The notes beneath the pieces are model-generated. The model did not search any database. It was not told the DNA's origin and saw nothing but the letters and a program-made list of their open reading frames with translations. Source: Zoroaster sp. YZ-2022 (taxonomy: Eukaryota; Echinodermata; Asteroidea; Forcipulatida; Zoroasteridae). From it: a stretch of 64,000 bases of DNA. This document shows positions 41,701 to 61,866 of this stretch, in pieces. Within the stretch, counting starts at the first letter, position 1. Each line of letters starts with the position of its first letter. A program made the position numbers and the translations under genes. The stretch spans positions 18,269,056-18,333,055 of the forward strand of contig CM055828.1 of the NCBI GenBank assembly GCA_029582265.1, read 5' to 3'.

Positions 41701-42131
41701 GAGAACCTAAGCTTTAATTTGGATATAAATTTGTCGGCCTCCTTAAAAACTTTTAAGGTTATAACCGTCGCTAGAAATAATGTCATTCGTATTTGTGTTT
41801 TAATCACAACAATATAGGCTGTCTACCCTGAGTTATATGGCGTATTTTGACGGTATTTTACAGGGGGCTAAGTGTCCATGGAGGCCGATTAAGGTATGAA
41901 GAAATTGTCTAAATGTAAAAGTCATGTGATTTCCTAAAAGAGGAGAACCTAAGCTTTAATTTCGATATAAATTTGTCGGCCTCCCTTAAAGACTTTTAAA
42001 GTTATAACCGTCGCTAGAAATAATTTCATTCGTATTTGTGTTTTAATCACAATAATATATGCTGTCTACCCTGAGTTATGGCCCGTATTTTGACAGTATT
42101 TTGCGGAGGGCTCAGTCTGCATGGAGGCCAT
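26704..42131 (+). repeat. 243-bp satellite array
   Basis: Head-to-tail monomers of 242-244 bp (successive TGCATGGAGGCC sites near 26,931, 27,173, 27,417, 27,660, 27,903, 28,146 and 28,389). Each runs GGTATGAAGAAATT, TCATGTGATTTCC, AACCTAAGCTTTAATT, AACCGTCGCTAGAAATAA, TTTTAATCACAACAAT, CCTGAGTTATGGCC. Monomer subtypes alternate: AATATAGGCTGTCTACC against AATGTCGGGTGTTTACC, TTACTGAGGACTAAG against TTGCGGAGGGCTCAG, and a form with a 4-base deletion reading CTAATAAAGTCATG. No coding frame survives. Size and homogeneity fit centromeric or heterochromatic satellite DNA. Confidence 0.95.
35160..41290 (+). repeat. 2.04-kb higher-order repeat within the satellite
   Basis: A truncated monomer junction, AGGACTCAGT joined directly to AACCGTCGC (AACTGTCGC in the last copy), recurs at 35,167, 37,208, 39,255 and 41,280, spacings 2,041, 2,047 and 2,025 bp. 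Between junctions the order of monomer subtypes is largely repeated, including the AATATTTTCATTCG variant. Each unit therefore holds about eight full monomers plus one part. A related junction at 45,318 lies beyond an insertion. Confidence 0.85.
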
Positions 42132-45408: not shown

Positions 45409-45908
45409 NNNNNNNNNNNNNNNNNNNNNNNNNNNNNNNNNNNNNNNNNNNNNNNNNNNNNNNNNNNNNNNNNNNNNNNNNNNNNNNNNNNNNNNNNNNN
45501 NNNNNNNNNNNNNNNNNNNNNNNNNNNNNNNNNNNNNNNNNNNNNNNNNNNNNNNNNNNNNNNNNNNNNNNNNNNNNNNNNNNNNNNNNNNNNNNNNNNN
45601 NNNNNNNNNNNNNNNNNNNNNNNNNNNNNNNNNNNNNNNNNNNNNNNNNNNNNNNNNNNNNNNNNNNNNNNNNNNNNNNNNNNNNNNNNNNNNNNNNNNN
45701 NNNNNNNNNNNNNNNNNNNNNNNNNNNNNNNNNNNNNNNNNNNNNNNNNNNNNNNNNNNNNNNNNNNNNNNNNNNNNNNNNNNNNNNNNNNNNNNNNNNN
45801 NNNNNNNNNNNNNNNNNNNNNNNNNNNNNNNNNNNNNNNNNNNNNNNNNNNNNNNNNNNNNNNNNNNNNNNNNNNNNNNNNNNNNNNNNNNNNNNNNNNN
45901 NNNNNNNN
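45409..45908. other. Assembly gap (500 N)
   Basis: Exactly 500 unknown bases. Frames spanning it are meaningless. The left terminus of the virus-like block may lie in or beyond it. Confidence 0.98.
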
Positions 45909-46799: not shown

Positions 46800-47462
46800 A
46801 ATAGCATAATCCGGTAGGTTGATCCGTTTTAAATCAATTTGCAATGTTTGTGACCTGTTTTAAATTTTCTCATGCATCTGCTCTCTTAACTCTTTCGTCG
46901 GTATGACATCATTTCTCGAAGACAATCTTCGAACGAGTTTCTATCTTTACAATAAAATAACAAACCCATTTGAGTTGCTCTCAAAATCTTTTAATACACT
47001 ATTATTATATTTTGTGAAAATGATCCAACAGCTGTGATTAGCGTCGACCGCTAAAAAGCCAAGTATACCAACGCATTCGTCTCATCTCGACAAAAAATTG
47101 TATATCGCAAATCTTTACTCGCGCGCTACAATCGTTGATGATAAACAACGTCTCGTATCCTTTTGAATATGTCATGCTATACATTTCTATCGCTTTTGTT
47201 TAAACGTATAATTTTTAATCGTTAACATATTAACTTCTGCTCTGTCGTTCCCAATCCATTTTCTATTTTTAGATACGTGTCGTTGTCACCGATGGTGCAG
47301 GGACATATATTATGATGACGATCGTTTCGAAAATTATTTTAATATATCTCTTTTGTAACAAATTTAAAACAAATTCAGTTTTTCCGGCATCCGGTTTGTC
47401 CGCAAAATTAATGCAGCGTGTGGATATTTAGGCAACATTCCTTTTTAATATTAGTAGTTAAT
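46800..47462 (-). pseudogene. P-loop ATPase-like relic of the virus-like block
   Basis: Heavily broken minus-strand gene. Around 47,400-47,340 one frame reads PDAGKTEFVLNLLQKR. The glycine-rich first half of a nucleotide-binding P-loop is present but one base out of frame with the GKT half, because of an extra C near 47,386. A GKT followed by a hydrophobic helix fits FtsK/HerA-type packaging ATPases of polinton-like and other large DNA viruses, which pump DNA into capsids. Farther along, YLKIENGLGTTEQKLI and VIPTKELREQMHEKI appear in other frames. No Walker B could be fixed. It lies downstream of the capsid-like gene on the same strand. The assignment rests on one motif. Confidence 0.4.
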
Positions 47463-48760
47463 GCTAATAATCGACAGATATCCAAAACGCCCATTTTTTA
47501 TAACGAGTTGCGCGTCCATAATAATAAAAGTATACATGTATAACCACCCGGGGTTTCCGCTTCTTATCTATTCATTTGAATGAGTAATTCCTTCGGATAA
47601 GTTTTGTACTCGTCTTCCGCTTCCGTGTATTTTATTGTCATCGCTCGTTCTCATATCCTAAAATAAACCGTATCGATTGAGTAAATAATCAGCTTGTTTT
47701 GACGTTGGATAAATTTAGAGTTTTAACGACTTGTATAGCGTGTGTTTGTTTGTTAGAATCTACCGGGAAATAATTTTGAATTTCTTCCAACGTGTTGATA
47801 CTCTTTTCATTCCGTGCGCGTAGAGTTGATTGGGGAAAACGCCTTCGATGGTAGTAATTGAAACTTTATCGATTTTTGGATTATAAAATGTGTTGGTTTC
47901 TCTTCACATCGGGTTCTTTTGAATAAAACAATATTCCCTTTCATACTTTTTTTGCGGGTATTTAAATTTTATATTCCACGTCGGGGATCGCGTTTGTTTA
48001 ACGGGTCACGCTCTGTCTTAAAACGCGATCAAAACAATAATCGACCAAACGGTTGCTATATTGATTTTTAATCGTTTCGAGCGAAGTTCCGCATATGAAC
48101 GACTTGGAATTCTAAAGAAATCCCACCTTATGATATATTTTGTATTATCGTCGGTGCTTAATCACGTTTGAAAATTTATTAAACACGAGTTCGTAAGTCA
48201 ATTTATCTCCGAGCCCCGATTGGTAGTAGGGCTGATGATTGGTCAACAATTCAAAATCGAGCGGAATGCGATATCTATTTTTAATGTATCCGCGATGGCT
48301 TTATCTTTTCCTCCGTTGCCCGGGGAACCGCGTCGCTGGCGCCCATTCTTAATTTAGTTGCGTTAGCAGTTTCGATTCCCTTGATACGCCAAATTTTGTT
48401 GATCTTTCGTTAACCATTCGTCTTTATAACAATTGAACACATCCGCATCGTCTAATGAAAATATTTCATTTTCCCCATTTTAATGATTATATGTTTTACG
48501 ATGGCTCTACTACCTATATTCTGTACTATCGTTCTCGTATCATCATCCGCAGAATGAAGATCAATGTTGAAAGCTAATCGAACCGTTCCGGAACGATGAC
48601 GTCATTTATTCCTAAATTTGGAAACGAACCGTCAACAATTGATTTTCGGTAATGGTGCTCGGATTGTTTGTAATGACGACTTTTGACGCAATCCTTTTAA
48701 TCCCAAAGGATTTCTTAATCTTCTGTATGGATCGAGTACATCTCCGTACGTATTAGTCAT
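47462..48760 (-). pseudogene. Candidate capsid-like protein gene, frameshifted
   Basis: The largest gene of the block, ~430 codons, starting at ATG 48,760. Recognisable pieces in changing frames, in order: MTNTYGDVLDPYRRLRNPLG, VRLAFNIDLHSADDD with TIVQNIG, PLDFELLTNHQPYY with SGLGDKLTYELVFNK, FYNPKIDKVSITT with FPNQLYAHGMK, and near the end MYTFIIMDAQLVIKNGRF (47,535-47,485). At least six frameshifts separate them. Beta-rich content, size and its place before an ATPase-like gene suggest a major capsid protein, as in viruses of the double-jelly-roll lineage, but I see no diagnostic residues. I have an impression of similar uncharacterised proteins in marine invertebrate genomes; not verified. 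Confidence 0.4.
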
Positions 48761-48828
48761 ATTTTATGTTTGTAAATATAAATAAATTCAAAAATTAAAA
48801 AATTTAAAACTAAAATGGTGAGTGTAGG
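48761..48828. promoter_or_regulatory. Divergent AT-rich promoter region
   Basis: Sixty-eight bases between the minus-strand capsid-like start (48,760) and the plus-strand cluster. About 90% A/T (AAATATAAATAAATTCAAAA), with TATA-like words in both directions. Same character as the divergent region at 52,376-52,409. Confidence 0.45.
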
Positions 48829-49240
48829 ATGATGATTGGAGGCGCGGTAGTCAACGGTTAGCATTTACCGGATCAATTTTGTTTTTTTCGAGGTGGTCAT
48901 GAAGAACAAAAGACACGATTTAGCGATAGAACAACTTTCGAAAGCCAGAGATGAATTTAGTAAAAAGCGTTTAAAATATCTAGATTATTTAAATGAAAAA
49001 ATACAAAAAGAATCGAGCGCTGTAAGAACGTTTAATAACATTGACGAAGCGATGAATGAATATTCACGAGTTACGGGTGAACAATTTGATTTACCAGAAG
49101 ATTTATACAACGAACCCAAACTTACAGATTTTTACGTTCCTAGCGAAGATCAAAAAACGCGAGAAATCATATTCATTATTTTAGGAATGAGTGCTGTAGG
49201 TTACGTGAGTTATAAATTATTAAAAAAAGATAAAAAGTAA
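48829..49240 (+). pseudogene. Small coiled-coil protein with C-terminal membrane anchor (block gene A)
   Basis: Function unknown. From ATG 48,899 an intact frame of 113 codons reads a charged helix (RHDLAIEQLSKARDEF), a middle part with TFNNIDEAMNEYSRVTGEQF, an aromatic-acidic stretch (LTDFYVPSEDQ) and a hydrophobic segment (FIILGMSAVGYVSY) followed by lysines, as in a tail-anchored membrane protein. Upstream ATG 48,829 opens MMIGGAVVNG before a stop, and the next frame gives LAFTGSILFF, so a hydrophobic N-terminus has probably been split off by two frameshifts. Seven bases separate it from the next gene. Likely a virion or membrane component by position; that is inference. Confidence 0.6.
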
Positions 49241-49247
49241 TTATAAA

Positions 49248-49655
49248 ATGGCAGCAGGAGGACATGATCTTATAGAGGCGGATCCGTTATTACAAAATCT
49301 TGACGATGATAATGAACTAAGTGAAGGAGATTATACTTCGTCCCTTGAAATGGAAAGACAAAGAGATTTAGAAAGATTAGAAAGATTACGTGGTGATACT
49401 ACTTTAACGTTAAGATCATCAGAGAGTCAACGAGTTGATGATTTTTATACTATGGTTAAAAATCAAGGCTGGAAATTAAACAAACAGCCGGAATGGGAAA
49501 AATTTCACGTACTTAACGACGGTATATATTATAGAGACGATAATGGCTCAAGCGTCAAGTTGACGTATGAGAATAAACCCAGAACCTTTGCTGCGTTAAG
49601 TACAATAGCCGGTAGAGCCAAAAAGGGCTGGCTTTTAGCCCGACTAGATTCATGA
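49248..49655 (+). CDS. 135-residue acidic protein, intact (block gene B)
   Basis: Uninterrupted frame from ATG to TGA. The first 40 residues are acidic (EADPLLQNLDDDNELSEGD), then a charged helix (MERQRDLERLERLRGD), then a compact region with regularly spaced aromatics (VDDFYTMVKNQGWKL, then WEKFHVLNDGIYYRDDNG) and a basic C-terminus (AGRAKKGWLLARLD). No signal peptide or membrane segment. No family recognised. It is one of only two full-length genes left in the block. Its TGA overlaps the next gene's ATG (ATGA at 49,652-49,655), a compact viral-style arrangement. Confidence 0.65.
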   Translation: MAAGGHDLIEADPLLQNLDDDNELSEGDYTSSLEMERQRDLERLERLRGDTTLTLRSSESQRVDDFYTMVKNQGWKLNKQPEWEKFHVLNDGIYYRDDNGSSVKLTYENKPRTFAALSTIAGRAKKGWLLARLDS

Positions 49656-50954
49656 GAGAGCAATTTGGTATAAAAGACTGGAGCAACCAAACCAAAAATA
49701 TCAAAAAATACTAGAAAAACAGATGAAACTTTAAAAGGCTAGAAAGTCCATCAGTTAGGAAAAGCAAGTCGAAAGCTACCCAACACCACCTACACCAGCT
49801 CAAGAAGAAGAAGAGGATGAAACAGTTTTACGACGCCAATGGTATTGAAAAGTGATCTACGAGTAAATAAGGCTGTAGATGCGATTGAAGAATATATTAG
49901 AGTTCTCTATACAAGCAGAAACTCAAGAGGAAATGAATGTATACCGTGAAATAAGGGGTTACGCAGATCTTATGAAAACATCGCAAGGACACAAATTAAA
50001 ATTTGAAGCTGAATTGTATACACGAACCAAAGAATTAGCAACAGTTAGAGAACGAATCGCTAATAATGATGTAGGAGATGAAAATGCGATGGAACAACTT
50101 GTACAACGAGAGCAAGAATTATTAGACGAAATAGCTACGATTAAAGAACAAATATTCAAATTTGATGACGCTAGTCGTAGTCAAATCAATAGAATAGGAG
50201 AAACGTTTTATAGAATAAAAAATATAGATAAAACGTTAGGTGAAAGAATTAAAAACTTATTTAGAGAACAAGGTATAACGATCGTCAGTATATTAACGGC
50301 TTTAGTATGACCATCGTCGCCATCGTAACATCGATCGGTAAAACTGTAAAATTTTACCAAAACCCATACCTACACTGCCAGAACCTACGCCTAGCGGTGA
50401 CGGTGTAAAAGAGTGGATACAAAAACATTAAAAAATTAGCGAGTGTATTAGCTAAACTAGGAGAAAAGTTTTTAGCCGCTTTACCGAGTATTATCGGTGC
50501 GGTTATAAGTTGGTTATTTAAAACAGCTTCTAGCATCGTCAGTAGCGGAACAAGCTGCCGGGCCGGGGCAGAGCGCACGGTCGGCCCCTCCCCCAGGCAT
50601 CATTCCCCAACCACACGTGATTTCCCGAGACCCGTCATGATTACACTTCATGTTTTCAGGGGAGCTCAAAAAAGAAAGGGCCCGGTTGATTTGTGTAAGT
50701 TCCAGCTCGGGCCCGGTCCCCCAACCACCCCCACCCCCACCCCCCCCCCACCCCCCTCCACCAGAATGTTAATTTTTTTTTTTTTCTTTGGGGAGGGGGT
50801 CCGGGCCCCCCCTCCGGGCCGGGGGACGGCTGCCCCCCCAGTCCCCCCTGACGGTCCGCCACTGAGCATCGTCACGTGGACGGCGGAACATTTGTGGCTA
50901 GCTTTGACGGGGGTTGGAGTTTTAATTTTAACTTACGTGCAGAAAAAACTCTAG
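49652..50954 (+). pseudogene. Coiled-coil protein with hydrophobic C-terminus, split by a MITE (block gene C)
   Basis: Starts MREQFGIKDW inside the ATGA overlap, soon frameshifts, passes a proline/glutamate linker (PTPAQEEEEDE) and enters a 143-codon frame at 49,879-50,310 that is strongly helical (EIRGYADLMKTSQGHKL, VQREQELLDEIATIKEQI). After another frameshift it reads VLAKLGEKFLAALPSIIGAV, is broken at 50,539 by a 325-bp MITE, and resumes in phase at 50,873 with TAEHLWLALTGVGVLI to a TAG at 50,952-50,954. Two or three amphipathic-hydrophobic helices at the end suggest a membrane-active or membrane-spanning role, perhaps in the virion. Function unknown. About 320 codons without the insertion. 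Confidence 0.6.
50540..50864. mobile_element. hAT-type MITE with 8-bp target duplication
   Basis: The ends CAGTAGCGGAAC (left) and, read inward, CAGTGGCGGACC (right) are terminal inverted repeats. AGCATCGT is duplicated exactly on both sides (50,532-50,539 and 50,865-50,872). An 8-bp duplication and CAGNGGCGG ends define the hAT superfamily. It is GC-rich (many C runs) against the AT-rich host gene and has no transposase, so it was moved in trans. Confidence 0.9.
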
Positions 50955-50975
50955 CCTTAGCGGTGCTAACGCTAG
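50951..50975. terminator. Hairpin between convergent genes C and D
   Basis: CTAGC-C-TTAGC, loop GGT, GCTAA-C-GCTAG: two 5-bp helices separated by one C-C mismatch. It overlaps the stop codon of gene C and faces the end of gene D 55 bases away. A similar but stronger hairpin lies at the other convergent junction (60,138-60,164). It may terminate transcription or direct 3'-end processing on both strands. Confidence 0.5.
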
Positions 50976-51029
50976 AATAGCACTGTAAATCATAACACCA
51001 AGTCCACTTAAAATCGCAAAACCAATAAT

Positions 51030-51477
51030 TTAAAGCATTTTTTCTTCTTGGTGGTTGTCGCGCGATTCTTTAAAGGGTCTTGAGTTATTGTAGCTTCCAA
51101 AGAGTCTTGGGTTATTGTAGAGGAGATTTTGCACACTCGTTGTTGTAGGCTCGATACTAGATCATTAGATTCTTCTACAGCTTCGCTAGCGTGCTTAGCG
51201 GTTAACGGTGGCGTTGATTGTGAAGGTGGAATAGACGATGAGGAACGGGTTCTGAATTTGTATCTAAATTTGAACCTAGAGGATAAATCACTGTCGCGAT
51301 TAATATATTATTGTTGTATCCTGCATACGTGCCTATTCGTAAATTCATATCGCTCGGCATCATGTATACATTTTCTCCGATAGCAAAGTTTAATTGAGAA
51401 CGAGCGTATTGTAAATTATCTTGATATCGTTGAATAGAAGATTGTAAATCGACCGGAGAATCAATCTCGGCATCCAC
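51030..51477 (-). pseudogene. Small protein with disordered C-terminus (block gene D)
   Basis: The first frame reads DAEIDSPVDLQSSIQRYQDN, then LNFAIGENVYMMPSDMNLRI and GYNNNILIATVIYPLGSNL; after one frameshift near 51,245 the end reads SEAVEESNDLVSSLQQRV and a serine/threonine/lysine-rich tail closing with TAA at 51,030-51,032. No ATG is in phase at the start; GTG stands there (51,475-51,477), perhaps a mutated ATG, preceded by a TTTATAAATATA leader like those of other block genes. No family recognised. In the same direction as and just downstream of gene E. Confidence 0.5.
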
Positions 51478-51502
51478 TATATTTATAAATTACGCTGCGC
51501 GT

Positions 51503-52375
51503 CTAAACCGGTGCTGGGGTGTAAGAACCACTTTTAACTCTTACTTGAGCTCCCAATAATGCGTAAACGTAGGTTCTTATAGAGTCGTTTATGCGTTCTG
51601 TACCGACATCCGTAAAACCTTTAGCTAATCCCAAAGACAATATAAATTTAGTCCACGCTGTTTCAACGGGTTCAGATTGAGAAATGTATTCAACAACGTA
51701 CGAACCCCCAATATCATTAACGCTATTCACTTTATCAAGATTAACATTTTCTTTATCAAAATCCATCCTTTTATTGTTTTGATGAAACAAAGTTGAATTG
51801 TCATAGTTTTTCCCTGGCACTGGAATGTAGCCGTAAATGTTCAAATAATAAGCCGTTCCCAATCCGTAGAGTTTTTTCTACTGTTGTTTCCAATTATCCG
51901 ATATTGCGAGGTGAAATTCATTACATAGTCTATTGTACGCGCTAATGTTCATATTGTTGGCAAACGCGTCATACAAATTTGAAAGATGTAGGACAACTCA
52001 TTTCTTTGAGCATTCGTCTAATTTGATAATGTACGTGAAATCTAAAAAACTACGAATCACCAAGTTTGAATGATTTAAATGTTCACAAACCCACACCGCA
52101 TCTCGTTGTACTGCAATACGTTACAAAATTTATTTGATTTTGATAAAATTTTAGCGGGTTAGAATGCCAATCATTTACAACATCGTTGCTATCAACGTGA
52201 GGTAACACATAATTTTGAAATGGATTAACGAGTTCTGCGCTAAAAAACTCTGTCTCGTTGATATAAATTTTTATACTCGTCAAATCGCTAGCATTAAAAT
52301 TCTGAGGCGCGTTAAAATTTCCAGATTGCTTATATGGAAATGAAAATTACCCGAAACGCTATTTGGAAATGTCAT
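51503..52375 (-). pseudogene. Candidate minor structural protein, frameshifted (block gene E)
   Basis: Begins at ATG 52,375 (MTFPNSVSGNFHFHISNLE), shifts frame, then reads LTSIKIYINETEFFSAELV and NPFQNYVLPHVDSND to about 52,085. The middle (52,085-51,870) is badly broken. The last part, 51,862-51,503, is open: YYLNIYGYIPVPGKNYDNST, SYVVEYISQSEPVETAWTKF, SLGLAKGFTDVG, YVYALLGAQVRVKSGSY. About 290 codons in all, possibly two genes fused or abutting near 51,990. Alternating hydrophobic beta-like strands are compatible with a jelly-roll capsid or penton-type protein, but no homology is established. Divergent from gene F across 34 bases. Confidence 0.5.
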
Positions 52376-52409
52376 TTATTATTTAAAATTATAAATTTTT
52401 AATAATAAA
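52376..52409. promoter_or_regulatory. 34-bp divergent promoter between genes E and F
   Basis: TTATTATTTAAAATTATAAATT and the following bases are almost pure A/T and separate two oppositely directed start codons (ATG 52,375 minus, ATG 52,410 plus). TATA-like words lie within 25 bases of each ATG, so leaders must be extremely short. This is typical of poxvirus-like or polinton-like compact late promoters; inference. Confidence 0.45.
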
Positions 52410-53087
52410 ATGTATCATACCTTTGAAATCGAAATTGAAAAAAATGGCGGGTTGGTTCAATTAAATGACGTCATCGATAATCGCGAGGGTAATCTTACGA
52501 TATCATTACATAGCGTAAACATTTGGGTGGGATATTACAACGTGCGTAAAAAGAAAGAATAATTTATCGTACGGTGGGTGAGCGACAAGATGTCGTAAAG
52601 TTTATCGAACCGGGACTTTACAACATTAACGAAATTATCAATATTATAGTAAAAGATGCGTCTTGGATCACGTTCACCATCGATAAAACAACAGGTTTTT
52701 TCTTGCTAAATTTGACTCAAGAAAACAAATCCGTCAAATTTACATCTGGGTTAGCTAATTTACTCGGGCTTCACGACGAATTTCTAACTGTGGGAGAATA
52801 TAGTAAACAAAATTGATGTACAACTTTTTAAAATTCTATACATTCATTGCGATCAAATTTCTACGACCGAAAATTATTTCAACGGTAAACCTTGTACTAT
52901 TTTAAACGCTTTTCCCTTGCAACGTAAATCATTCGGAGAAAGTATGTGGATGGAATATAAAAATCCATTAATGAAAAAGCTTAAAGTCGGTACTTTTAAC
53001 GCATTGAGCTTTCAACTTAAAGATTCAAAGGGTAGAGACATACATAATCACGGTTTCCCCGTTATTTTAAATCTAGAAATTATATAA
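52410..53087 (+). pseudogene. Beta-rich ~225-residue protein, two frameshifts (block gene F)
   Basis: Three consecutive frames cover one gene. 52,410-52,562 reads MYHTFEIEIEKNGG then LTISLHSVNIWVGYYN. 52,567-52,816 reads VVKFIEPGLYNINEIIN, FTIDKTTGFFLLNL and FTSGLANLLGLHDEFL. From about 52,800 to 53,087 it reads LFKILYIHCDQISTTENYF, CTILNAFPLQRKSFGESM and NHGFPVILNLEII. No signal peptide or membrane span. The alternating pattern and size suggest a single jelly-roll-like or fibre/penton-like structural subunit, but no signature is visible. Its last 18 bases, together with the leader of gene G, are repeated before gene H, showing where a tandem duplication broke. Confidence 0.55.
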
Positions 53088-53139
53088 ATATGGCGAGCAT
53101 TTATGGGCCTCCTCGAACGAGCGGCGTAGCTGCTAAAGA

Positions 53140-53680
53140 TAATAATAATGTATAGATTTATATAGCGCACGTATCCACCAACTAAGTGGCGCTCAAGGCG
53201 CATTATATATTATTATCCCTGCTCATAAGGCTCATAAGGCTCATAAATCATTCCTGAAACCATCTCAGCTCCCTGGGGAGTATACAGCTCAATTGCTGCC
53301 ATTTCTAGCGCATATAGAGCAAACCATCTCTGCCTTCACATGTAACCATTTAACCCCTGGGTGGAGAGAAGCAATTATGGTTAAGCGTCTTGCTCAAGGA
53401 CACAGGTGTCACGCCGGGGCTCGAACCCACACTCTGCTGCTGGCAACACCAGAACTTGAGTTCAGTGCGCTAGACCGCACGACAATCCACTTTACGTGCA
53501 TTATACAACACACGGGACCTACGGCTTTACGTCCCATCCGAAGGACGAAGCAATTATGGTTAAGTACCTTGCTCAAGGACACAAGTGTCACGACCGGGGC
53601 TCGAACCCACACCCTGCTGCTGGCAACACCAGAACTTGAGTTCGGTGCGCTAGACCGCTCGGCCACGACACTCCATATAG
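53140..53680 (-). mobile_element. Dimeric tRNA-Leu SINE inserted in gene G
   Basis: Reverse-orientation copy of the element at 56,307-56,838, nearly identical over its length. Read on the minus strand it has a tRNA-Leu(CAA)-like head (GTGGCCGAGCGGTCTAGCGC, GGGTTCGAGCCCCGG), a linker, a second related tRNA-like unit with another GGGTTCGAGCCCCGG-type B box, a body with GGGGTTAAATGG, and the tail CGCTATATAAATCTATAC plus ATT units. No clean target duplication could be fixed. The frames of 107-160 codons across it are not genes. Confidence 0.8.
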
Positions 53681-53687
53681 AGACGAA

Positions 53688-53798
53688 ATTGTACAAACAA
53701 TCTCTCACTATGGTGAAATTTATGAACACCACGGATATATTAACAGAGATGAAATTTTACAAACGTTACCTATAGTCGAAAAATTTAACGTCATACTA
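53688..53798 (+). pseudogene. Middle exon-like piece of gene G
   Basis: The ~37 codons between the SINE and the 4.46-kb element stay open in one frame and end exactly at the TA dinucleotide where the element starts. Listed separately because both edges are insertion sites, not splice sites. Confidence 0.55.
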
Positions 53799-54350
53799 AT
53801 GTTCCTTCGTTTTGAACGTGCGTAGGACCGTAGTAACGTAAAGACCTCAACACTGCCCAATGATAAGTCTCGATAGGACAAGCCCCACCCAACTAGGACC
53901 GTGGTCTTGATTGAACATCATAAATATTCATGCCATATAAATATTCTCTTCCGAGGGCATGCGCACAGTAGAATGTCGTACCGGTCCACTGCCTCTAACC
54001 ATAACAAGCGCATCGCTAACAAGCGCACCTGTTGGTTCGAGCGCTTAAAGGAATGCATTTGAATGCAGGTCGGTTTATGTGGCTTTCAACACTGGGAAGA
54101 ATATGCAAATGTGGGTTTCACCTTTGGAGTGCGATTTCGCTCCTTGCTCCATTGAATGGTGATCCACTTTCCCATAAACTGATAAACTGATAAACTGATA
54201 AATGAAGTAATATTAAATAATACGATAAATTAACTTAATGGTGAAATAATTTCTCATGAGAAATGAAATATACTAGACAAATGAAATAATTTGACATAGT
54301 ATAAATTATATAATTATGTCTGCATTGCCATAGCATTTATATTTTTCTTC
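53799..54350 (+). repeat. Left long terminal inverted repeat
   Basis: Pairs with 57,708-58,254. Diverged by scattered substitutions and small indels (for example AGTAATATTAAATAAT on this side where the other has a few bases missing), so the two arms have aged independently. Contains tandem GATAAACTGATAAACT near 54,180. Confidence 0.85.
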
Positions 54351-56023
54351 CAGGTTTACATTGATCCCAAACCACCTTCAACATGGATAACATTCACTCC
54401 ATTTCACCCGTGACGTAGTAAAATCAGAAATAAAACAGTTTGCGAAACAATTATTTTCTCTATTTATCATAACAAATTTATTAAAACACACGGGGTCATA
54501 ATGATATAATATTAAAAGGAATATTACCGTAAGTTCTATTTCTTTTCGGTATTAAAACGGCAAAGGTGTACACCAGAACATTGGTTTAAAGAATACTTGT
54601 TATAATAAATCAACTCATGACATGATTAAAGGCAAACTGAAATGGGTAGGCTACTCTTGATGATTATCATCTTGCTGTGGTGGGGTCTATCCTGTCGTTG
54701 AACTCTCGCATAGAGCGTTGGAAATCTCGCGTAATTTGCGGCAAAATGTTTCGGACATAGTTAAAGCAACGTGGCTTTCACGGATTATCATATGCAACGG
54801 TTGCCTTCCAAGTTCGCCAATGGGGAGGGGAATGTCTTCGCCCACTGGTGGCTGGACATCATGCCGTGGGCCTGCTTGGGGATGGTGTGCTGGCTGTTGT
54901 GGCGCTAAGGGTTGAATGACTTGTTGTGGGGCTTGCGGGGGCTGGGGTGGTGGCTGTTGGGGCTGGGGTGGTGGCTGTTAGTGTTGGATATCTGGCTGGG
55001 GTAGCTGAGGTGCTGGCTGTTGTGGCGCTAAGGGTTGAAGGGCTTGTTGTGGGGCTTGCGGGGGCTGGGGTGGTGGCTGTTGGGGCTGGGGTGGTGGATG
55101 TTAGTGTTGGATATCTGGCTGGGGTGGCTGAGGTGCTGGCTGTTGTGGCGCTAAGGGTTGAAGGGCTTGTTGTGGGGCTTGCGGGGGCTGGAGTGGTGGC
55201 TGTTGGGGCTGGGGTGGTGGCTGTTGGGGCTGGGGTGATGGCTGTTGGGGCTGGGGTGGTGGCTGTTGGGGCTGCAGTGGTGGCTGTTGGGGCTGGGTGG
55301 TGGCTGTTGGGGCTGGGGTGGTGGCTGTTGGTGTTGGATATCTTGCTGTTGTGGCGCTAGGTGTTGATGGGCTGGCTGGGGGTGCTGGAAGGCTGGTTGT
55401 GGAACATTTAGCTGTCCTGGTTGTGGGGCTGCTGGTAGCTGGCAGGGCGCAAATTGTATCCTAGCTCTGCGCTGTGCAGGGTTTCTCTGCGCTGTGCAGG
55501 GTTTCCCCTTGCTGCATAACGCATTTCCCCAAATCGTTGGTCTTGCAGCCTAGAAAAAAAGGAAGCATAACAGACTGTTTACCTTGCATTATTACATTAA
55601 CTTTTTAAGAATGATCTGTGGATAGTCTATTGTTGCCTTATGATCAGATATGTAGTTGTGTATTTATTTTTAAGGGGGCTGTAGGGCCGACCAATGTTAT
55701 GCAACCATTAATGTGAAAATGCACATAATCTGAATTTATTACTGCCCTTTTTATACTTAGCAACTTTTGACATGCTTCTTGTAAAAGGCTTCAGGCTTTT
55801 TCCGTCAGATGCTACTTGTGTAAAAATAATTGTCTCTTAGTTCTCACTTGCAACGTCTCGTGCCATCGCTTCCCCTCACCCTCCTCCTTAACTGTACATT
55901 GTTCCTTTGTAGATACAGCCGAGAAATTGGCCCTCGTGGGGCCATTGAGGGCCATGAATATTGTATCCTGCAAGGATGAGATGTCGTTCTTCTCTACTGA
56001 TTTGAGCGCGAGGAGCTTGATCC
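54351..56023 (-). pseudogene. Proline/glutamine-rich gene remnant of the TIR element
   Basis: On the minus strand a likely first exon (56,023-55,892) reads MDQAPRAQISREERHLI then GYNIHGPQWPHEGQFLG. An apparent acceptor (TTTTTTTCTAG) near 55,551 precedes LQDQRFGEMRYAARGNP. The donor position has TT where GT is expected, so splicing would be damaged. A long repeat-encoded stretch of prolines and glutamines follows (55,345-54,910), with stop codons in two of three larger repeats, then FNYVRNILPQITRDFQ to a stop near 54,680. The family is not recognised. It could be an accessory or DNA-binding gene of the transposon. Confidence 0.35.
54905..55345 (-). repeat. G-rich minisatellite (plus strand GGGGCTGGGGTGGTGGCTGTT)
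   Basis: Nested repeats: 18-21-base units GGGGCTGGGGTGGTGGCTGTT inside ~125-base units that start TGGCGCTAAGGGTTGA. On the minus strand it encodes proline/glutamine repeats. The long plus-strand glycine/valine frame over it is a shadow. Confidence 0.85.
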
Positions 56024-56227
56024 ATTTTTTTATTCCAAGGAAAGGACAGAAATTAATTTGATTGATGATGAGGTGAATGTGATGTGTGATCTTATTATAA
56101 TGCGTCGTAGGCCTATATTTAATGATCATCCTTCTGGGTGTGGCTAGCTCATATTCCGAAATCATCCAATTGTATTTAAGCATGGAGGAATAATTGCTCA
56201 ATTATTGGAGGACCCAGGGCAGTTAGT

Positions 56228-57706
56228 CTGCTGTTCACATTAAAATTACACTTGGTCGGCTCATAGAAAGCACCTGATGAGATTCAGGTCTGCTGTTCAC
56301 ATTAAAATGGAGTGTCGTGGCCGAGCGGTCTAGCGCACCGAACTCAAGTTCTGGTGTTGCCAGCAGCAGGGTGTGGGTTCGAGCCCCGGTCGTGACACTT
56401 GTGTCCTTGAGCAAGGTACTTAACCATAATTGCTTCGTCCTTCGGATGGGACGTAAAGCCGTAGGTCCCGTGTGTTGTATAATGCACGTAAAGTGGATTG
56501 TCGTGCGGTCTAGCGCACTGAACTCAAGTTCTGGTGTTGCCAGCAGCAGAGTGTGGGTTCGAGCCCCGGTGACACCTGTGTCCTTGAGCAAGACACTTAA
56601 CCATAATTGCTTCTCTCCACCCAGGGGTTAAATGGGTACCTGTGAAGGCAGAGATGGTTTGCTCTATATGCGCTAGAAATGGCAGCAATTGAGCTGTATA
56701 CTCCCCAGGGAGCTGAGATGGTTTCAGGAATGATTTATGAGCCTTATGAGCCTTATGAGCAGGGATAATAATATAATGCGCCTTGAGCGCCACTTAGTTG
56801 GTGGATACGTGCGCTATATAAATCTATACATTATTATTTGGTCGGCTCGTAGAAAGCACCTGATGAGATTCAGGTCTGTTGTTCATATTCAAATGACATT
56901 TGGTCGGCTCATAGAAAGCACCTGATGAGATTCAGGTCTGTTGTTCACATTCAAATGAGATTTGGTCGGCTCATAGAAAGCACCTGATGAGATTCAGGTC
57001 TGCTGTTCACATTAAAATGACATTTGGTCGGCTCATAGAAAGCACCTGATGAGATTCAGGTCTGCTGTTCATATTCAAATTACATTTGGTCGGCTCATAA
57101 AGCACCGATGAGATTCAGGTCTGCTGTTCACATTCAAATTACATTTGGTCGGCTCAAAGAAAGCACCTGATGAGATCCAGGTCTGTTGTTCATATTCAAA
57201 TTACATTTGGTCGGCTCAAAGAAAGCACCTGATGAGATTCAGGTCTGCTGTTCACATTCAAATTACATTTGGTCGGCTCATAGAAAGCACCTGATGAGAT
57301 TCAGGTCTGTTGTTCATATTCAAATGACATTTGGTCGGCTCATAGAAAGCACCTGATGAGATTCAGGTCTGCTGTTCACATTCAAATGACATTTAGTCGG
57401 CTCATAGAAAGCAGCTGATGAGATTCAGGTCTGTTGTTCATATTCAAATGACATTGGTCGGCTCATAGAAAGCACCTGATGAGATTCAGGTATGTTGTTC
57501 ATATTCAAATGACATTTGGTCGGCTCATAGAAAGCACCTGATGAGATTCAGGTCTGCTGTTCACATTCAAATTACATTTGGTCGGCTCATGAGAAAGCAC
57601 CTGATGAGATTCAGATCTGTTGTTCATATTCAAATGATATGTGGTCGGCTCGTAGAAAGCACCTGATGATTCAGGTCTGCTGTTTACATTCAAATGAGAT
57701 TTGGTC
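56228..57706 (+). repeat. 62-bp tandem repeat in the TIR element
   Basis: About fifteen units of TTTGGTCGGCTCATAGAAAG, CACCTGATGAGATTCAGGTC, TGYTGTTCACATTCAAATGA. Each unit carries the small palindrome CCTGA-TGAGAT-TCAGG. Units alternate between TGCTGTTCACATT and TGTTGTTCATATT forms, hinting at a two-unit period. Interrupted by the SINE at 56,307-56,838. Confidence 0.9.
56307..56838 (+). mobile_element. Dimeric tRNA-Leu SINE nested in the 62-bp repeat
   Basis: GTGTCGTGGCCGAGCGGTCT begins a tRNA-Leu(CAA)-like head with CTCAAGTTC anticodon loop and B box GGGTTCGAGCCCCGG. A linker (GATGGGACGTAAAGCC, GTGTTGTATAATGCACG) leads to a second head lacking the first A box, then the common body and a TATAAATCTATAC(ATT)n tail. 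It splits a 62-bp unit, so it is younger than the tandem array. Confidence 0.85.
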
Positions 57707-57707
57707 G

Positions 57708-58254
57708 GCTGGAAGAAAAATCTAAATGCTATGGCAATGCAGACTTAATTATATAATTTATACTATGTCAAATTATTTAATTTGTCTAGTATATTTCATT
57801 TCTCATGAGAAATTATTTCACCATTAAGTTAATTTATCGTATTATTTAATATTCCTTCATTTATCAGTTTATCAGTTTATGGGAAAGTGGATCACCATTC
57901 AATAGAGGAAGGAGCGAAATCGCACTCCCAAGGTGAAACCTACATTTGCATATTCTTCCTCGTGTTGAAAGCCACATAAACCGACCTGCATTCAAATGCA
58001 TTCCTTTACGCGCTCGAACCAACAGGTGCACGTTGTAGGGATGCGCTTGTTATGGTTAGAGGCAGTGGACCGGTACGATATTCTACTGTGCGCATGCCCT
58101 CGGAAGAGAACATTTATATGGCATGAATATTTATGATGTTCAATAAAGACCACGGTCCTAGTTGGGTGGGGCCTGTCCTATCGGGCTTATCATTGGGCAG
58201 TGTTGAGGTCTTTACGTTACTACGGTCCTACGCACGTTCAAAACGAAGGAACGT
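57708..58254 (-). repeat. Right long terminal inverted repeat
   Basis: Inverted partner of 53,799-54,350, ending GAAGGAACGT immediately before the TA at 58,255. The last bases up to 58,532 form an open frame with the following gene piece; that overlap has no biological meaning. Confidence 0.85.
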
Positions 58255-58601
58255 TACTCAGATGGTGGGCTACGTCTAAACTACCCTTTTTCATGTTTAA
58301 CGAGGCGCCAACGTACTGCTCTCTTTTTGTAAATTTTACAAAAGCTAATATTTTTACTTCATATTCGGCTACGCGTGATTATGCGGCTGACGTTTATTAT
58401 ATTCCTTCTCCAGCGCTAAATAATAGATTTTATTTTATCGATGATGAAATGTCGCATTTAAAATACGAAATGTGTTTTAAAATGCGAAATGTTCAAAAGG
58501 TTTTTGTAGAGGCAACCTTTTCGATGCGCTAAATTCTAAAATCTGTTTCAATATAAAAATTAAAAGTTTACCATTAAATTAAATCTAGAAATTATATAAA
58601 T

Positions 58602-59108
58602 ATGGCGAGTATTTATGGACCTTTCGTAGCGATAGTCAAAAGCGGAGAGAGTCATAACAATAAAATCTTCATCTTTGAAGATACTGGATATATCAGTCCT
58701 AGTGAACTTGTATATACTCTATCTTTATCTTCTTTTGATTATTTATATAATTTAAGCTTTGAAATGTATTGGTATCAAAATCGAATAAATGTTTTGTTCA
58801 AGATTTATTATTGTATTCATTCTATGCAAAAGTCATAGAGGTGAAAATAAATTCTTATTCTATAGTAAAAGTGAACAATTTGACGAAGATGATAAAACAG
58901 TAAGAAATCGAATTATTTTCCTGAAGGTGATAACTTTTCTTTTTCAAATGAACCGCGTTATTTAGAATGTGTAATATGTTTCCTTTCAAATGATTATAAA
59001 AATCATGCCAAAATCTATATTCAAGCTACTTTTTTTGGTGCTTTGAATACGGGAATATGCTACGAAATAAAAGTTTAAAAATTCCAATTAATACTTTTCC
59101 CGCAGATT
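58602..59108 (+). pseudogene. MASIYGP-family paralogue, frameshifted (block gene H)
   Basis: ATG 58,602 opens MASIYGPFVAIVKSGE, FIFEDTGYISPSELVY and SSFDYLYNLSFEMYW, stops at 58,836-58,838, then continues in other frames with FYSKSEQFDEDDKT, YLECVICFLSNDY and IYIQATFFGALNTG to about 59,108. Tandem duplicate of gene G: the 29 bases up to and into the ATG (AAATCTAGAAATTATATAAAT then ATGGCGAG) match those before gene G. The paralogues have diverged strongly in the middle, so the duplication predates integration or was under different selection. Function unknown. Confidence 0.6.
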
Positions 59109-59130
59109 AAAAGTTAAAAAAATAATCTTT

Positions 59131-59150
59131 ACTATTAATAGAAAACAATG
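59131..59150 (+). promoter_or_regulatory. Repeated leader motif before gene I
   Basis: ACTATTAATAGAAAACA directly precedes ATG 59,148. The same 17 bases, with CTTTT or CTTT in front, directly precede ATG 59,483 of gene J (59,466-59,482). Exact conservation at both start codons, once in non-coding and once in coding context, points to a promoter or initiation element. Confidence 0.5.
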
Positions 59151-59486
59151 ACTACAGATAATATCCAAGACTTGATTCGCTGTGAAGTGGAACGCTTACA
59201 AAAAGAAAACGACATTCAAAAAGAATTACAAGCAGAAAAAAACCAACGTGAGGTTGTATATGAAAAAATTAATGAAATCAATGAAACGTGCGAAGATTTA
59301 GATGATTTCATCCAAACTTTCAACTACGTAAAAATGATAACAACGTTTGGTCTGGCAATTGCACTAAGCTATGCTGCTGCTGCTGTATATGCCATGCCTG
59401 ACATTCATGAAAAAGCACAACAATTTCGAGAAAAACTTTCTAAAGTAGATTTTTTTAAATCTTTTACTATTAATAGAAAACAATGA
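59148..59486 (+). CDS. 112-residue coiled-coil membrane protein, intact (block gene I)
   Basis: Full frame from ATG to TGA. Residues 1-50 are a charged helix (RCEVERLQKENDIQKELQAE, NQREVVYEKINEINETCEDL) predicted as coiled coil. Residues ~66-86 form a hydrophobic segment (TTFGLAIALSYAAAAVYAM). The basic C-terminus is FREKLSKVDFFKSFTINRKQ. Probably a single-pass membrane protein. Its last codons contain the leader motif of gene J and its TGA overlaps that gene's ATG. The product resembles gene J in layout (coiled coil with REAVYKKYNKI / REVVYEKINEI, then hydrophobic), suggesting an old duplication. Function unknown. Confidence 0.65.
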   Translation: MTTDNIQDLIRCEVERLQKENDIQKELQAEKNQREVVYEKINEINETCEDLDDFIQTFNYVKMITTFGLAIALSYAAAAVYAMPDIHEKAQQFREKLSKVDFFKSFTINRKQ

Positions 59487-60103
59487 GGCGTACCTATAGA
59501 ATCAACGAATGTACTTTATCCAAATTTACGACCTATGACGGATAATGATACTAAAACATTTCGTTTGAAAAATAGATAACATTCAAAAAATTACGAATCG
59601 AAAGAAATGAGCGCGAAGCCGTATATAAAAAATATAATAAAATTATCAACGCTTGTAGTATCGTAGAAACTCTCGCTGAATTGGGTTGTATGGGAGCAGG
59701 AGCTATTGGAATCGCGAGTATCGCCACCGTTATAGCAGCGCCGGTTGGGCTTGTTTTAGAAGGTTTAGCTTTAGGGTTGGGTGGTGTGGCGTTTGCTCTC
59801 AGATACGCGAAATATAAATTATCTAAAAAAGCTAAAAAACACGATGAAATTAGAGTTTTAGCATCGTCTAAACTCAACACGATCTAAAACCACGTTTCAA
59901 AAGCGATCGAAGACGGTGTCATTACCCAAGATGAATTTTTACTCATCTGCGAAGAACGAGATAAATTTTCTCAAATGAAAGAAAATATTCGTACGGCGGC
60001 TCTACCAGCAGCTCCTAAAAATGATAATGTCGAAAAAAAACTAAATGTTAATTTAGATCAACAAAACAAAGATCTTATAGAAAAAATTATGAATTTAAAA
60101 TAA
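59483..60103 (+). pseudogene. Glycine/alanine-rich two-span membrane protein, broken (block gene J)
   Basis: Opens MRRTYRINECTLSKF, frameshifts near 59,540-59,600, then reads REAVYKKYNKIINACS, two long hydrophobic stretches (GAGAIGIASIATVIAAPVGL and EGLALGLGGVAFALRYA) and a basic helix (KKHDEIRVLASSKLN). A single in-frame TAA at 59,885-59,887 interrupts before HVSKAIEDGVITQDEFLLI and a lysine/asparagine-rich end at 60,103. About 205 codons. Hydrophobic hairpin plus basic helix suggests a virion membrane or membrane-remodelling protein; inference only. The hairpin at 60,138 follows. Confidence 0.6.
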
Positions 60104-60137
60104 ACTTTAGTGTAAATAAATCTTATTATAATCAAAA

Positions 60138-60164
60138 ACCCGCTTCGCAAATAGCGGAGCGGGT
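60138..60164. terminator. Strong 11-bp hairpin between convergent genes J and K
   Basis: ACCCGCTTCGC, loop AAATA, GCGGAGCGGGT: 11 consecutive pairs including one T-G wobble, GC-rich in an AT-rich block. It lies 35 bases after gene J and 47 bases after the end of gene K on the other strand. Symmetry lets it serve both transcripts. Palindromic hairpins at transcript ends are known in giant viruses of the mimivirus group as polyadenylation signals. Confidence 0.65.
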
Positions 60165-60210
60165 AAGAGTAACTGATAGACCTCCCCCGTATAATTTAAA
60201 TTTTTAGCCA

Positions 60211-60508
60211 CTATAAACGTAGAGTCTTTTTAACCAACTCTCTCATCGCTTTAGTATAATGTCGTCTAGCTTTTAATTCAACGAAATTTAAATAATTTAT
60301 TTTTAATACATTAACGCATTTCGTACATAAATTTATTGGTGTTTTTGTGCCATTTTTACATCTTCTACATGCATCGAGTATACTTGCACCATGTCGAATA
60401 CGCCACAAATGAAGTGGACAAAATACATCACCACACACTTTGTCTACAACACTTTTCTGTTTTGCCAACTAAAAGCCATTCGCACGAAATCATCACTCTC
60501 ATCGTCAT
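60211..60508 (-). pseudogene. Small cysteine-rich, probably zinc-binding protein (block gene K)
   Basis: The open frame carries CGDVFCPLHLW, then ACRRCKNG, then NLCTKCVNVLK, that is three CxxC/CxxxxC pairs with a histidine between, followed by a basic helix (RRHYTKAMRELVKKTLRL) to the TAA. The in-phase start is a TTG at 60,468; an ATG at 60,508 lies in another frame (ISCEWLLVGKTEKCCR), so one frameshift near 60,430-60,460 probably separates the N-terminus. Spacing fits a zinc-ribbon or double zinc-knuckle; which one is unclear. It could be a transcription or nucleic-acid-binding factor. The leader upstream is shared with gene L. Confidence 0.5.
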
Positions 60509-60509
60509 C

Positions 60510-60603
60510 TTTACTGTTCAGCTACATAATATGAAATCGTTATTTCAATTTTAAAACGACTAAAACCAATATCTTTTTTAGCAGATTAAAAAAAGACTTT
60601 TTT
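60510..60603 (-). promoter_or_regulatory. Duplicated ~94-bp leader, copy upstream of gene K
   Basis: Matches 61,561-61,653 at roughly nine of ten positions: AAATCGTTATTTCAATTT, then CGACTAAAACCAATATCTTT and AGCAGATTAAAAA on the plus strand. Both copies lie immediately upstream of a minus-strand gene, so they probably carry a shared promoter. Sequence between genes is otherwise minimal in this block, which makes conservation of 94 bases stand out. Confidence 0.6.
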
Positions 60604-60642
60604 ATTTAAATGTGATATTTAAAATTCAGCTTTCTTCGTTTT

Positions 60643-61552
60643 CTAAAAAGCTTTCGTCTTTAATATAAGCGGAAATTTTCCCAAATTACCTACCGACGCA
60701 GCAATTTTTAACGGAAAGTTTTCAACATGAGGCGCGTAAAATTGTATTTGTTTGTCTAAAGATGAAATTTTTAATAAAACGCTAAATAAAGTCACCGCAA
60801 AAGTAGCCGAATAAGTTGGCTGTTGTTTTTTGTCCGTGTTACCCAATTCTAAAGCTACGGTGTAAAGACTATCGTTATCGCTATAAAAACTAATGTAATC
60901 TAAATTGTGCATGTTTATGTCAATTTTCATGCCTACTTGCAACATTTTTTTAAGTTTTAAAAAATCGCTACTTTCAACTATATAAGGATATTTATAAATA
61001 TCATTACGCTCGTCATCGGGTGAACCAATTGAATTCATGTCAACTATCGTATTAATGCTCACGCTGTCAATTTCTCGTTTTTTTTCACCACACATTTCGA
61101 CTGTGCAAGTTTCGATATAAATTCGTTCATTTTTTACGTAAATAATTATTGGAACTTTTCGTTTAATGTTACGAATCATTCTTTGTAAATGTTTTAAATT
61201 AACCATAAATTCAATTGGGCTTTCACATTTAAATTCAAAAGTTTTCTCGGTTTAATACTATATCAATTAGTATTCTTTCCGTTCGATCCGTCGCGCGATA
61301 ATAAAATCCGTTTTCGTCTACTTTAAAATGAGCCTTTGTCTGAATGCCTGCTAAAATGTCGATTAAAATTTTAAACGTATAGCCCACTTTAATTTTCAAA
61401 TAAAAATCATAGTCCTTGTCTTTCTTATTTTTTTCCGCAGCTACAGCGTCCGGATCATAATCTTAAAATTTTATATCGCTCAACAAGACGGATCGTCTAG
61501 GCATATTTTTTAAAACTGGCGTTATCATTTCATATTTTTTTACATTCTCCAT
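60643..61552 (-). pseudogene. PCNA-like DNA sliding clamp, broken (block gene L)
   Basis: About 300 codons from ATG 61,552 (MENVKKYEM) to TAA at 60,643. First half: FKILIDILAGIQTKAHFKVD, NGFYYRATDRTERILID. Second half (open from ATG 61,206): NLKHLQRMIRNIKRKVPIII, MKIDINMHNLDYISFYSDND, SVLLKISSLDKQIQFYAP, FPLKIAASVGNLGKFPLIL. The order (an ID-type helix, then FxVDexG..xAxDRT, the N-L-K-x-L helix, and the closing VGNLG strand) follows the two-fold PCNA fold, a ring clamp that tethers replicative polymerases to DNA. Lesions: in-frame TAA at 61,463-61,465 and a one-base frameshift at the T/A run at 61,236-61,244. Slightly longer than cellular PCNA (~260). It is AT-rich like its neighbours and unlike an exon-split host gene. 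Confidence 0.6.
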
Positions 61553-61560
61553 ACTCTCTT

Positions 61561-61653
61561 TTTACTATTCATCTACATAATAGTAAATCGTTATTTCAAT
61601 TTCTTAGCGACTAAAACCAATATCTTTTTTTAGCAGATTAAAAATACTTTTTT
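61561..61653 (-). promoter_or_regulatory. Duplicated ~94-bp leader, copy upstream of gene L
   Basis: Partner of 60,510-60,603. It ends nine bases before the ATG of the clamp-like gene (minus strand), whereas the other copy starts two bases from ATG 60,508, so spacing to the start codon is conserved too. Contains ACTATTCATCTACATAATAG, a small palindrome. Confidence 0.6.
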
Positions 61654-61866
61654 CTACAACACACTCAGTCTTTAACAAATCTTACCCCTATACCTATACA
61701 CAACGTCACGCAACCGCAAACCTTTCATGACGTCATCAAAAAAATGATGACGTCATCAACCACACCCACTCACCCACCCACTTTTTAAAATCTCATCATC
61801 GACCACGCCCATTTTTGGGGTACTTGTCCTAAAACCCCCATCTAACATACTACTCCAGTGGTAGTA
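61654..61866. other. Non-coding right terminal region of the virus-like block
   Basis: No gene. Holds two TGACGTCA palindromes (61,726-61,757), CACCCACTCACCCACCCAC, and a 19-base imperfect palindrome TACTACTCCAGTGGTAGTA (61,848-61,866). The composition changes to ordinary host DNA after about 61,900, so the block probably ends near here. Without the left end a terminal inverted repeat cannot be confirmed. Confidence 0.4.
61726..61757. promoter_or_regulatory. Paired TGACGTCA palindromes
   Basis: CATGACGTCATC, seven A, then GATGACGTCATC (61,746-61,757). Each is a full cyclic-AMP-response-element palindrome, and the pair can also fold as one long hairpin. Such sites bind CREB/ATF factors in animals. 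Whether it acts as an enhancer of the clamp gene is inference. Confidence 0.45.

What the first reader, a model, noticed from the sequence alone, without database searches (positions are those of the whole stretch)
46800..61866. A decayed, densely packed virus-like gene block in an animal-type genome
Seen: about fourteen small genes, apparently intronless, in strand-switching clusters, with ATGA overlaps (49,652 and 59,483), gaps of 2-34 bases, AT-rich leaders directly before ATGs, and hairpins at convergent ends. This differs from everything else in the window. Inference: an integrated DNA virus or Polinton-like element with clamp, P-loop ATPase, capsid-like and membrane-protein genes. Without its three nested insertions it is about 9.7 kb. 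No polymerase B, integrase or cysteine protease is visible.
Basis: partly seen in the sequence, partly recalled or inferred. Interest (0 to 1): 0.9.

Follow-up and report, generated by a model that had tools for sequence, protein, structure and literature searches.

The report
Decayed animal Polinton carrying a PCNA-type clamp
This block is the remains of a virus-like mobile element (a Polinton, or Maverick) that is repeated many times in this genome, and unusually it carries a gene for a ring clamp of the kind that holds DNA-copying enzymes on DNA.

Summary
46.8-61.85 kb is one degraded, left-truncated Polinton/Maverick. Its major capsid gene (47,484-48,763, minus) is a full-length pseudogene of a double jelly-roll family, followed by an A32-type ATPase. 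Its right end carries the Maverick ACTACT terminus. The genome holds many copies: a capsid query gave 3053 first-look candidates, and all 97 scored match. Three copies read on both sides have the same gene order. One has an rve integrase and a polymerase-B-like gene, which this copy lacks.

The unusual part is a PCNA-type clamp gene (60,629-61,552, minus). It is over Pfam's cut-off in 6 of 6 unbroken copies tested, has 150 scored genomic matches including the window's own, and dN/dS of 0.29-0.58. It lies near at least 16 of 97 scored capsid genes, in all 16 upstream on the same strand. Two elements with both ends lack it, so it is an accessory gene. The one related polymerase studied is not stimulated by PCNA (PMC3511435). 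What the clamp does is inferred.

The parts
46800..47438 (-). packaging ATPase (A32 type), decayed: matches in three frames
   Evidence: tblastn of unbroken ATPases of other copies, best E 6e-20; such an ATPase matches Pox_A32 at 1.6e-10, over the cut-off
47484..48763 (-). major capsid protein, double jelly-roll family; full-length pseudogene
   Evidence: protein search best E 2.3e-42; collinear tblastn; Capsid_N in 57 of 60 relatives; fold
48893..49240 (+). small protein with a hydrophobic stretch near its C end
   Evidence: 79% and 84% identical frames in two other copies
49248..50954 (+). one decayed gene, interrupted at about 50,565-50,870 by a G/C-rich stretch
   Evidence: 427-aa frame in copy L035 aligns in pieces
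50976..52375 (-). element gene of unknown function, in several frame pieces
   Evidence: pieces 51205-51477, 51506-51877 and 52086-52346 match all three copies
52408..53084 (+). gene matching a 248-aa frame of another copy; minor capsid protein suspected, not tested
   Evidence: tblastn 55% identity over 2-248, E 1.9e-74
53091..58532 (+). gene of about 160 aa split by the two nested insertions
   Evidence: 3' piece 73% identical to L035; 163-aa frame in L035
58602..59075 (+). tandem paralogue of the preceding gene (same start MASIYGP), decayed
   Evidence: paralogues in L035
59148..59486 (+). small protein, partial paralogue of the next gene's N-terminal part
59487..60103 (+). gene with a glycine-rich hydrophobic stretch; weak DUF4781 match below the cut-off
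   Evidence: 73-82% identity to three copies; Pfam E 2e-4
60211..60490 (-). small Cys-rich (zinc-type) protein; its counterpart lies within the terminal repeat of copy C12
60629..61552 (-). PCNA-type sliding clamp, with frame breaks
61561..61630 (.). leader of the clamp gene, repeated at 60,510-60,579 before the Cys-rich gene
   Evidence: 89% identity
61839..61854 (+). right terminus of the element (ends ACTACT)
   Evidence: termini of three other copies
53141..53676 (.). nested SINE-like insertion
   Evidence: inverted copy at 56,307-56,838, 98.7%
53797..58256 (.). nested element with inverted terminal repeats

Best explanation
The block is one degraded, left-truncated, integrated copy of a Polinton/Maverick, a linear double-stranded DNA virus-like element of about 16-17 kb. 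In intact members an rve integrase inserts the element by its AGTAGT.../...ACTACT ends, a B-family polymerase (protein-primed in Polintons generally) copies it, and an A32-type ATPase packages it into a double jelly-roll capsid. This copy kept the part from the ATPase to the right end and lost the polymerase, the integrase and the left end. It was triplicated together with its flank on the same chromosome, and its genes are broken by frame breaks, stops and three insertions. It belongs to a subset that carries a PCNA-type sliding clamp just inside the right terminus. Most likely the clamp forms a ring on the element's DNA during copying or repair and recruits the element's polymerase or host clamp partners. 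Shown: gene identities (the polymerase by sequence motifs only), gene order, termini, copy number, linkage of the clamp to the element, selection on the clamp. Inferred: protein priming, ring formation, the clamp's partners, and whether any copy still makes particles.
For: Capsid. ATPase Pox_A32 1.6e-10 and rve integrase 8e-9 in another copy, both over the Pfam cut-off. Same gene order in three copies. Inverted repeats of 275 bp (96%) and 698 bp (94%) in two of these three copies, and in pieces in a fourth; ends AGTAGTATG...CATACTACT with 5-bp flanking repeats in 3 of 3 elements with both ends. (AGT)2//(ACT)2 ends, a mean length of 16.9 kb and terminal repeats of 46-1447 bp are given for vertebrate Mavericks in PMC8097293 (passages). 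Clamp: PCNA_N over the cut-off in 6 of 6 unbroken copies submitted; a profile of 8 finds PCNA chains in the PDB (best 7.8e-16, a fused triple PCNA; best single chain 2.6e-10); dN/dS 0.29-0.58 in 15 pairs of 6 genes; linkage to capsid genes; one element with both ends carries it inside its right terminal repeat. Triplication.
Against: No Pfam, PHROGs or PDB match names the polymerase-like frame as a polymerase; only its motifs do. Flanking repeats are 5 bp exact, not the 6 bp given for vertebrate Mavericks. No protease was recognised. Fewer than one in five scored capsid copies has a detected clamp, and the one clamp-bearing element read end to end has its polymerase in several frames and no integrase match. 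The window's terminus as a lone pattern could arise by chance (32 of 100 shuffles have a match with up to 3 mismatches). The C-terminal half of PCNA is not found by Pfam. The clamp's role is untested.
Confidence: 0.85

Rival explanations
1. The block is a fragment of a larger nucleocytoplasmic DNA virus (NCLDV), a group that typically carries PCNA, an A32 ATPase and a capsid protein of this fold (recalled), rather than a Polinton.
For: The capsid model is nearest to PBCV-1 and iridovirus capsid proteins, and PCNA plus A32 fit that group.
Against: Complete elements in the same genome are 16-17 kb between matching termini, with an rve integrase, terminal inverted repeats and Maverick end motifs. 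Krupovic and colleagues also found Polinton capsids nearest to PBCV-1 by profile (PMC4028283, passages).
Confidence: 0.04
2. The element is a Polinton, but the clamp is not a replication factor for it: it is a decoy or hijacker that binds host PCNA partners, or a gene on its way out.
For: A related Polinton-like polymerase (EhDNApolB2) has no PCNA-binding motif and is not stimulated by PCNA (PMC3511435, passages). A simple motif scan found none in the element polymerase frame. Two elements with both ends lack the gene.
Against: Selection is purifying (dN/dS 0.29-0.58) and the PCNA N-terminal domain is kept; a decoy could also show this.
Confidence: 0.3
3. The clamp is a chance neighbour, for example a PCNA pseudogene of the host.
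For: It is absent from the three copies first read.
Against: 16 of 97 scored capsid copies have it, 16 of 16 on the same strand and upstream, 11 of 16 at 6.3-7.3 kb; random placement gives 0.14 and 0.87 pairs. It lies 597-657 bp from the terminus in 7 of the 7 clamp loci where the terminus was found, out of 20; these 7 are about 4 independent insertions. Four element clamps show no significant match to the host PCNA stretch fetched, which covers its first exons only (best E 0.19).
Confidence: 0.02

Closest known systems
Vertebrate Mavericks/Polintons (PMC8097293, passages read)
   Same: intronless genes; capsid, ATPase and integrase; (AGT)2//(ACT)2 ends; terminal inverted repeats of hundreds of bp; about 16-17 kb; accessory regions flanking the core
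   Different: PCNA-type clamp in the accessory zone; 5-bp rather than 6-bp exact flanking repeats in 3 of 3; no protease recognised; polymerase supported by motifs only
Cnidarian Polinton capsid group (PMC10120064, passages)
   Same: animal Polinton-like capsids reported to fall outside the main Maverick cluster; this family might belong there
   Different: not compared with their sequences here
Adintoviruses (paper not held; seen only in citing passages)
   Same: animal elements largely synonymous with Polintons according to PMC10120064
   Different: no sequence comparison was possible beyond the BFVD fold match to an adintovirus capsid entry (rank 6)
PCNA sliding clamp (PF00705)
   Same: N-terminal domain over the Pfam cut-off; profile matches to PDB PCNA chains
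   Different: virus-element gene with a longer N-terminal tail in several copies; C-terminal domain not named by Pfam; ring not shown
EhDNApolB2, a Polinton-derived polymerase of Entamoeba (PMC3511435, passages)
   Same: transposon-derived family B2 polymerase, the class Polintons carry
   Different: reported as processive by itself and not stimulated by PCNA, which makes a PCNA gene in a Polinton unexpected

Membership tests
Polinton/Maverick | double jelly-roll major capsid protein | tested here: met
   decayed in the window
Polinton/Maverick | A32/FtsK-type packaging ATPase | tested here: met
   Pox_A32 1.6e-10 in another copy; window pieces
Polinton/Maverick | rve integrase | tested here: met
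   Pfam rve 8e-9 in copy C1:38.26M; matches in copies C12 and C10; none in the window nor in the clamp-bearing copy
Polinton/Maverick | protein-primed B-family polymerase | tested here: inconclusive
   1257-aa frame with motif A (DANNLY) and motif C (YTDTDS) by regex; no family match
Polinton/Maverick | terminal inverted repeats with (AGT)2//(ACT)2 ends | tested here: met
   three other copies; no repeat found for the fourth (C10); in the window only the right end is left
Polinton/Maverick | 6-bp target site duplication | tested here: inconclusive
   5-bp exact repeats flank 3 of 3 elements with both ends; the sixth base does not match
Polinton/Maverick | adenovirus-type cysteine protease | tested here: inconclusive
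   not recognised in the frames submitted to Pfam; not every frame was submitted
Polinton/Maverick | minor (penton) capsid protein | not tested
   L035:4259-5002 is a candidate by position only; no Pfam match, no structure made
PCNA sliding clamp | PCNA N-terminal domain | tested here: met
   37.5-42.1 bits against a cut-off of 20.3 in 6 of 6
PCNA sliding clamp | PCNA C-terminal domain | tested here: inconclusive
   no Pfam match; one PDB alignment spans both domains (4hk1, profile 27-267)
PCNA sliding clamp | trimeric ring on DNA | not testable with these tools
   the single-sequence model of the window piece was poor
Nucleocytoplasmic large DNA virus | large genome, not a 16-17 kb element with rve integrase and Maverick ends | tested here: not met

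The most novel reading that the evidence does not exclude
A lineage of animal Polintons has taken up a PCNA-type sliding clamp and uses it to copy its own linear genome, combining two replication strategies usually treated as alternatives: a polymerase that is processive by itself and one that depends on a clamp. The gene sits beside the right terminus and has been kept by selection through many insertions.
Probability: 0.45. Interest if true: 0.75.

Novelty: new variant of a known kind. Interest (0 to 1): 0.62.

Why it matters
Polintons are central to ideas about the origin of eukaryotic DNA viruses, and the one related polymerase studied works without PCNA (PMC3511435, passages). A PCNA-type clamp kept by selection in a Polinton subset is a natural, testable case of a small integrating virus gaining a large-virus replication gene. 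Elements with and without the clamp lie in one genome, so their success can be compared directly. The paper searches that asked for Polinton together with PCNA, its full name, or sliding clamp listed no paper that I recognised as describing a PCNA in a Polinton; that speaks only for those listings and the passages read.

Tried and rejected
IMG/VR: eight scans gave no relative; the two pattern hits, L001 and L002, look like phage contigs by their frames. Protein database: the clamp frame and the single-frame ATPase gave nothing; the capsid query worked. Phage and plasmid records: capsid none in either, clamp none in phages. Genome contigs: one 4.6-kb contig in an archaeal MAG (L003). Pfam, PHROGs and NCBIfam of window frames gave weak hits only; the clamp piece alone pointed the right way. 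Rfam: nothing. Single-sequence model of the clamp piece: pLDDT 36, useless. L062, meant to show the left end of a duplicate, shared nothing with window 43-52 kb, so the left break is undated. PCNA-binding motif scan: two hits, one beyond an element's end and one in a small unknown gene, read as chance. A host origin of the clamp was looked at only by tblastn to part of the host gene; no tree was built. Families missing from the VIA list are not excluded. The host was not identified.
Full report
What was checked. Region 46.8-61.9 kb was read on both strands. Two stretches are richer in frames than shuffled DNA, one is not, and the left 2 kb has no frame of 60 aa; one of three flanking controls is also rich. 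So the case rests on homology. The left part turned out to hold the two best-recognised genes in decayed form.

Other copies. The window is C13:18,269,056-18,333,055 of a 1,001,958,528-base assembly. The capsid query gave 3053 first-look candidates; the 97 scored all match at E <= 1.4e-180. Of 30 fetched capsid loci, 24 have an unbroken frame of 415 aa or more. In three copies read on both sides, 13, 14 and 13 of 16 window pieces match, in the same order; the two clamp pieces match in none. Beyond the ATPase, where the window copy stops, the copy at C1:38.26-38.28M has an rve integrase (8e-9) and a 1257-aa frame with polymerase motifs A and C, and its ATPase matches Pox_A32 at 1.6e-10. That polymerase frame is named by no family or structure library (its L003 relative). 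Neither polymerase nor integrase matches the window. Inverted repeats are 275 bp (96%) and 698 bp (94%) in two copies; none was found in the third. Ends read AGTAGTATG...CATACTACT with 5-bp flanking repeats in 3 of 3 elements with both ends. From these coordinates the elements are 16.1, 16.8 and 18.3 kb long; the last, the clamp-bearing one, has about 2.3 kb between parts of its right terminal repeat. These marks are given for vertebrate Mavericks, with 6-bp duplications (PMC8097293, passages).

The window copy. Its right terminus at 61,839-61,854 differs by one base from that of other copies. As a lone pattern it could be chance (32 of 100 shuffles have a match with up to 3 mismatches), but the paired TGACGTCA sites found in several termini lie beside it, and its place and neighbours fit. 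Window 59.15-62.7 kb, flank included, is 98.3% and 98.9% identical to two places on the same chromosome about 109 and 212 kb away, one inverted. So one insertion was triplicated with its surroundings.

The clamp. Two frame pieces, 61,238-61,462 and 60,646-61,251 (minus), align one after the other to the N-terminal part of PCNA, weakly. The genome search settled it: 638 first-look candidates, 150 scored, the window's own included, all at E <= 5.2e-64. Six of six unbroken copies submitted exceed the PCNA_N cut-off. A profile of eight finds PDB PCNAs (82 distinct sequences at E <= 0.01, 60 shown; best 7.8e-16, a fused triple PCNA; best single chain 2.6e-10). A PCNA_N query of the genome gave 328 candidates, of which 150 were scored, all over the cut-off: 3 are parts of one gene at C9 split by introns, the likely host PCNA, and 147 are elsewhere, each in one block. 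Four element clamps show no significant tblastn match to the fetched first exons of that host gene (best E 0.19), but 52-84% identity among themselves.

Linkage. Of 97 capsid matches, 11 have a clamp match within 25 kb and 8 have a PCNA_N match within 25 kb; 3 are shared, so 16 of 97. In 16 of 16 the clamp is upstream on the same strand; 11 of 16 lie at 6.3-7.3 kb. Random placement gives a mean of 0.14 (same strand, 4-20 kb) and 0.87 (either strand, 25 kb). Only the best matches were scored, so 16 is a lower bound, and absence near the other 81 is not shown. In the element at C1:91.49-91.51M the clamp lies between the Cys-rich gene and the right terminal repeat, inside both termini. Its polymerase, in several frames, is 69-83% identical to that of the clampless element, and no integrase match was found in it. 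The elements at C1:38.26-38.28M and C12:26.43-26.45M have both termini and no clamp match. dN/dS among six clamp genes is 0.29-0.58 in 15 pairs: purifying selection, but much weaker than the value near 0.001 reported for cyprinid Maverick core genes; pairwise counts include decay after insertion.

How it probably works. Integration, copying and packaging follow the Polinton scheme (inferred from gene identity). The clamp's role is open. A related polymerase has no PCNA-binding motif, is not stimulated by PCNA and is processive by itself (PMC3511435, passages), and a simple scan found no such motif in the polymerase frame here. I favour a role on the element's DNA in replication or repair (about 0.6; direct help to the element's polymerase about 0.35) over a decoy or hijack role (about 0.3).

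Novelty. Nine paper searches were made; in their listings I recognised no paper on a PCNA in a Polinton. The texts of PMC11071308, PMC11071296 and PMC10120064 have no occurrence of PCNA (term search); PMC11244446 mentions it for giant-virus insertions (passages). The library lacks most subscription papers, and the adintovirus paper was not held. I file this as a new variant of a known kind.

Noticed in passing
61728 and 61748; L034 2619/2639; L035 7289/7309; L036 3619/3647; L037 8698/8726: Paired TGACGTCA palindromes 20-28 bp apart lie in the terminal repeats of several copies (also L041 and L042), but not in L043, L060 or L061. They are a CRE/ATF-type site by recall, so host factors might drive the outermost genes.
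   Followed up: partly
L034:2759-6529, L037:6148-8130, L060:4230-5426: The polymerase-like frame holds an endonuclease-VII-type zinc region (PF02945, E 9e-4 to 4.5e-5; PHROGs 1.5e-5).
   Followed up: no
53797-58256: Nested element with inverted repeats of about 0.56 kb, 94.8% identical, holding 62-bp and 123-bp tandem arrays; its own family was not identified.
   Followed up: partly
53141-53676 and 56307-56838: Two SINE-like units, inverted and 98.7% identical, one in the viral gene and one inside the nested element.
   Followed up: partly
26706-45321: Large 243-bp satellite array, in several blocks, directly left of the minisatellite that borders the element.
   Followed up: no
2394-3232 and 7790-8619: Degenerate TTAGGG-like arrays inside the chromosome.
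   Followed up: no
25585-26084 and 45409-45908: Two stretches of exactly 500 N.
   Followed up: no
L003: A contig filed in an archaeal MAG (JAADDH010000017.1) carries decayed Polinton capsid, ATPase and polymerase-like pieces: probably a misbinned eukaryotic contig.
   Followed up: partly
L044 and L046 (C1:16.83M and C1:17.05M): Another clamp-bearing insertion duplicated with its flank, 98.1% identical and inverted, about 0.22 Mb apart, as for the window copy.
   Followed up: no
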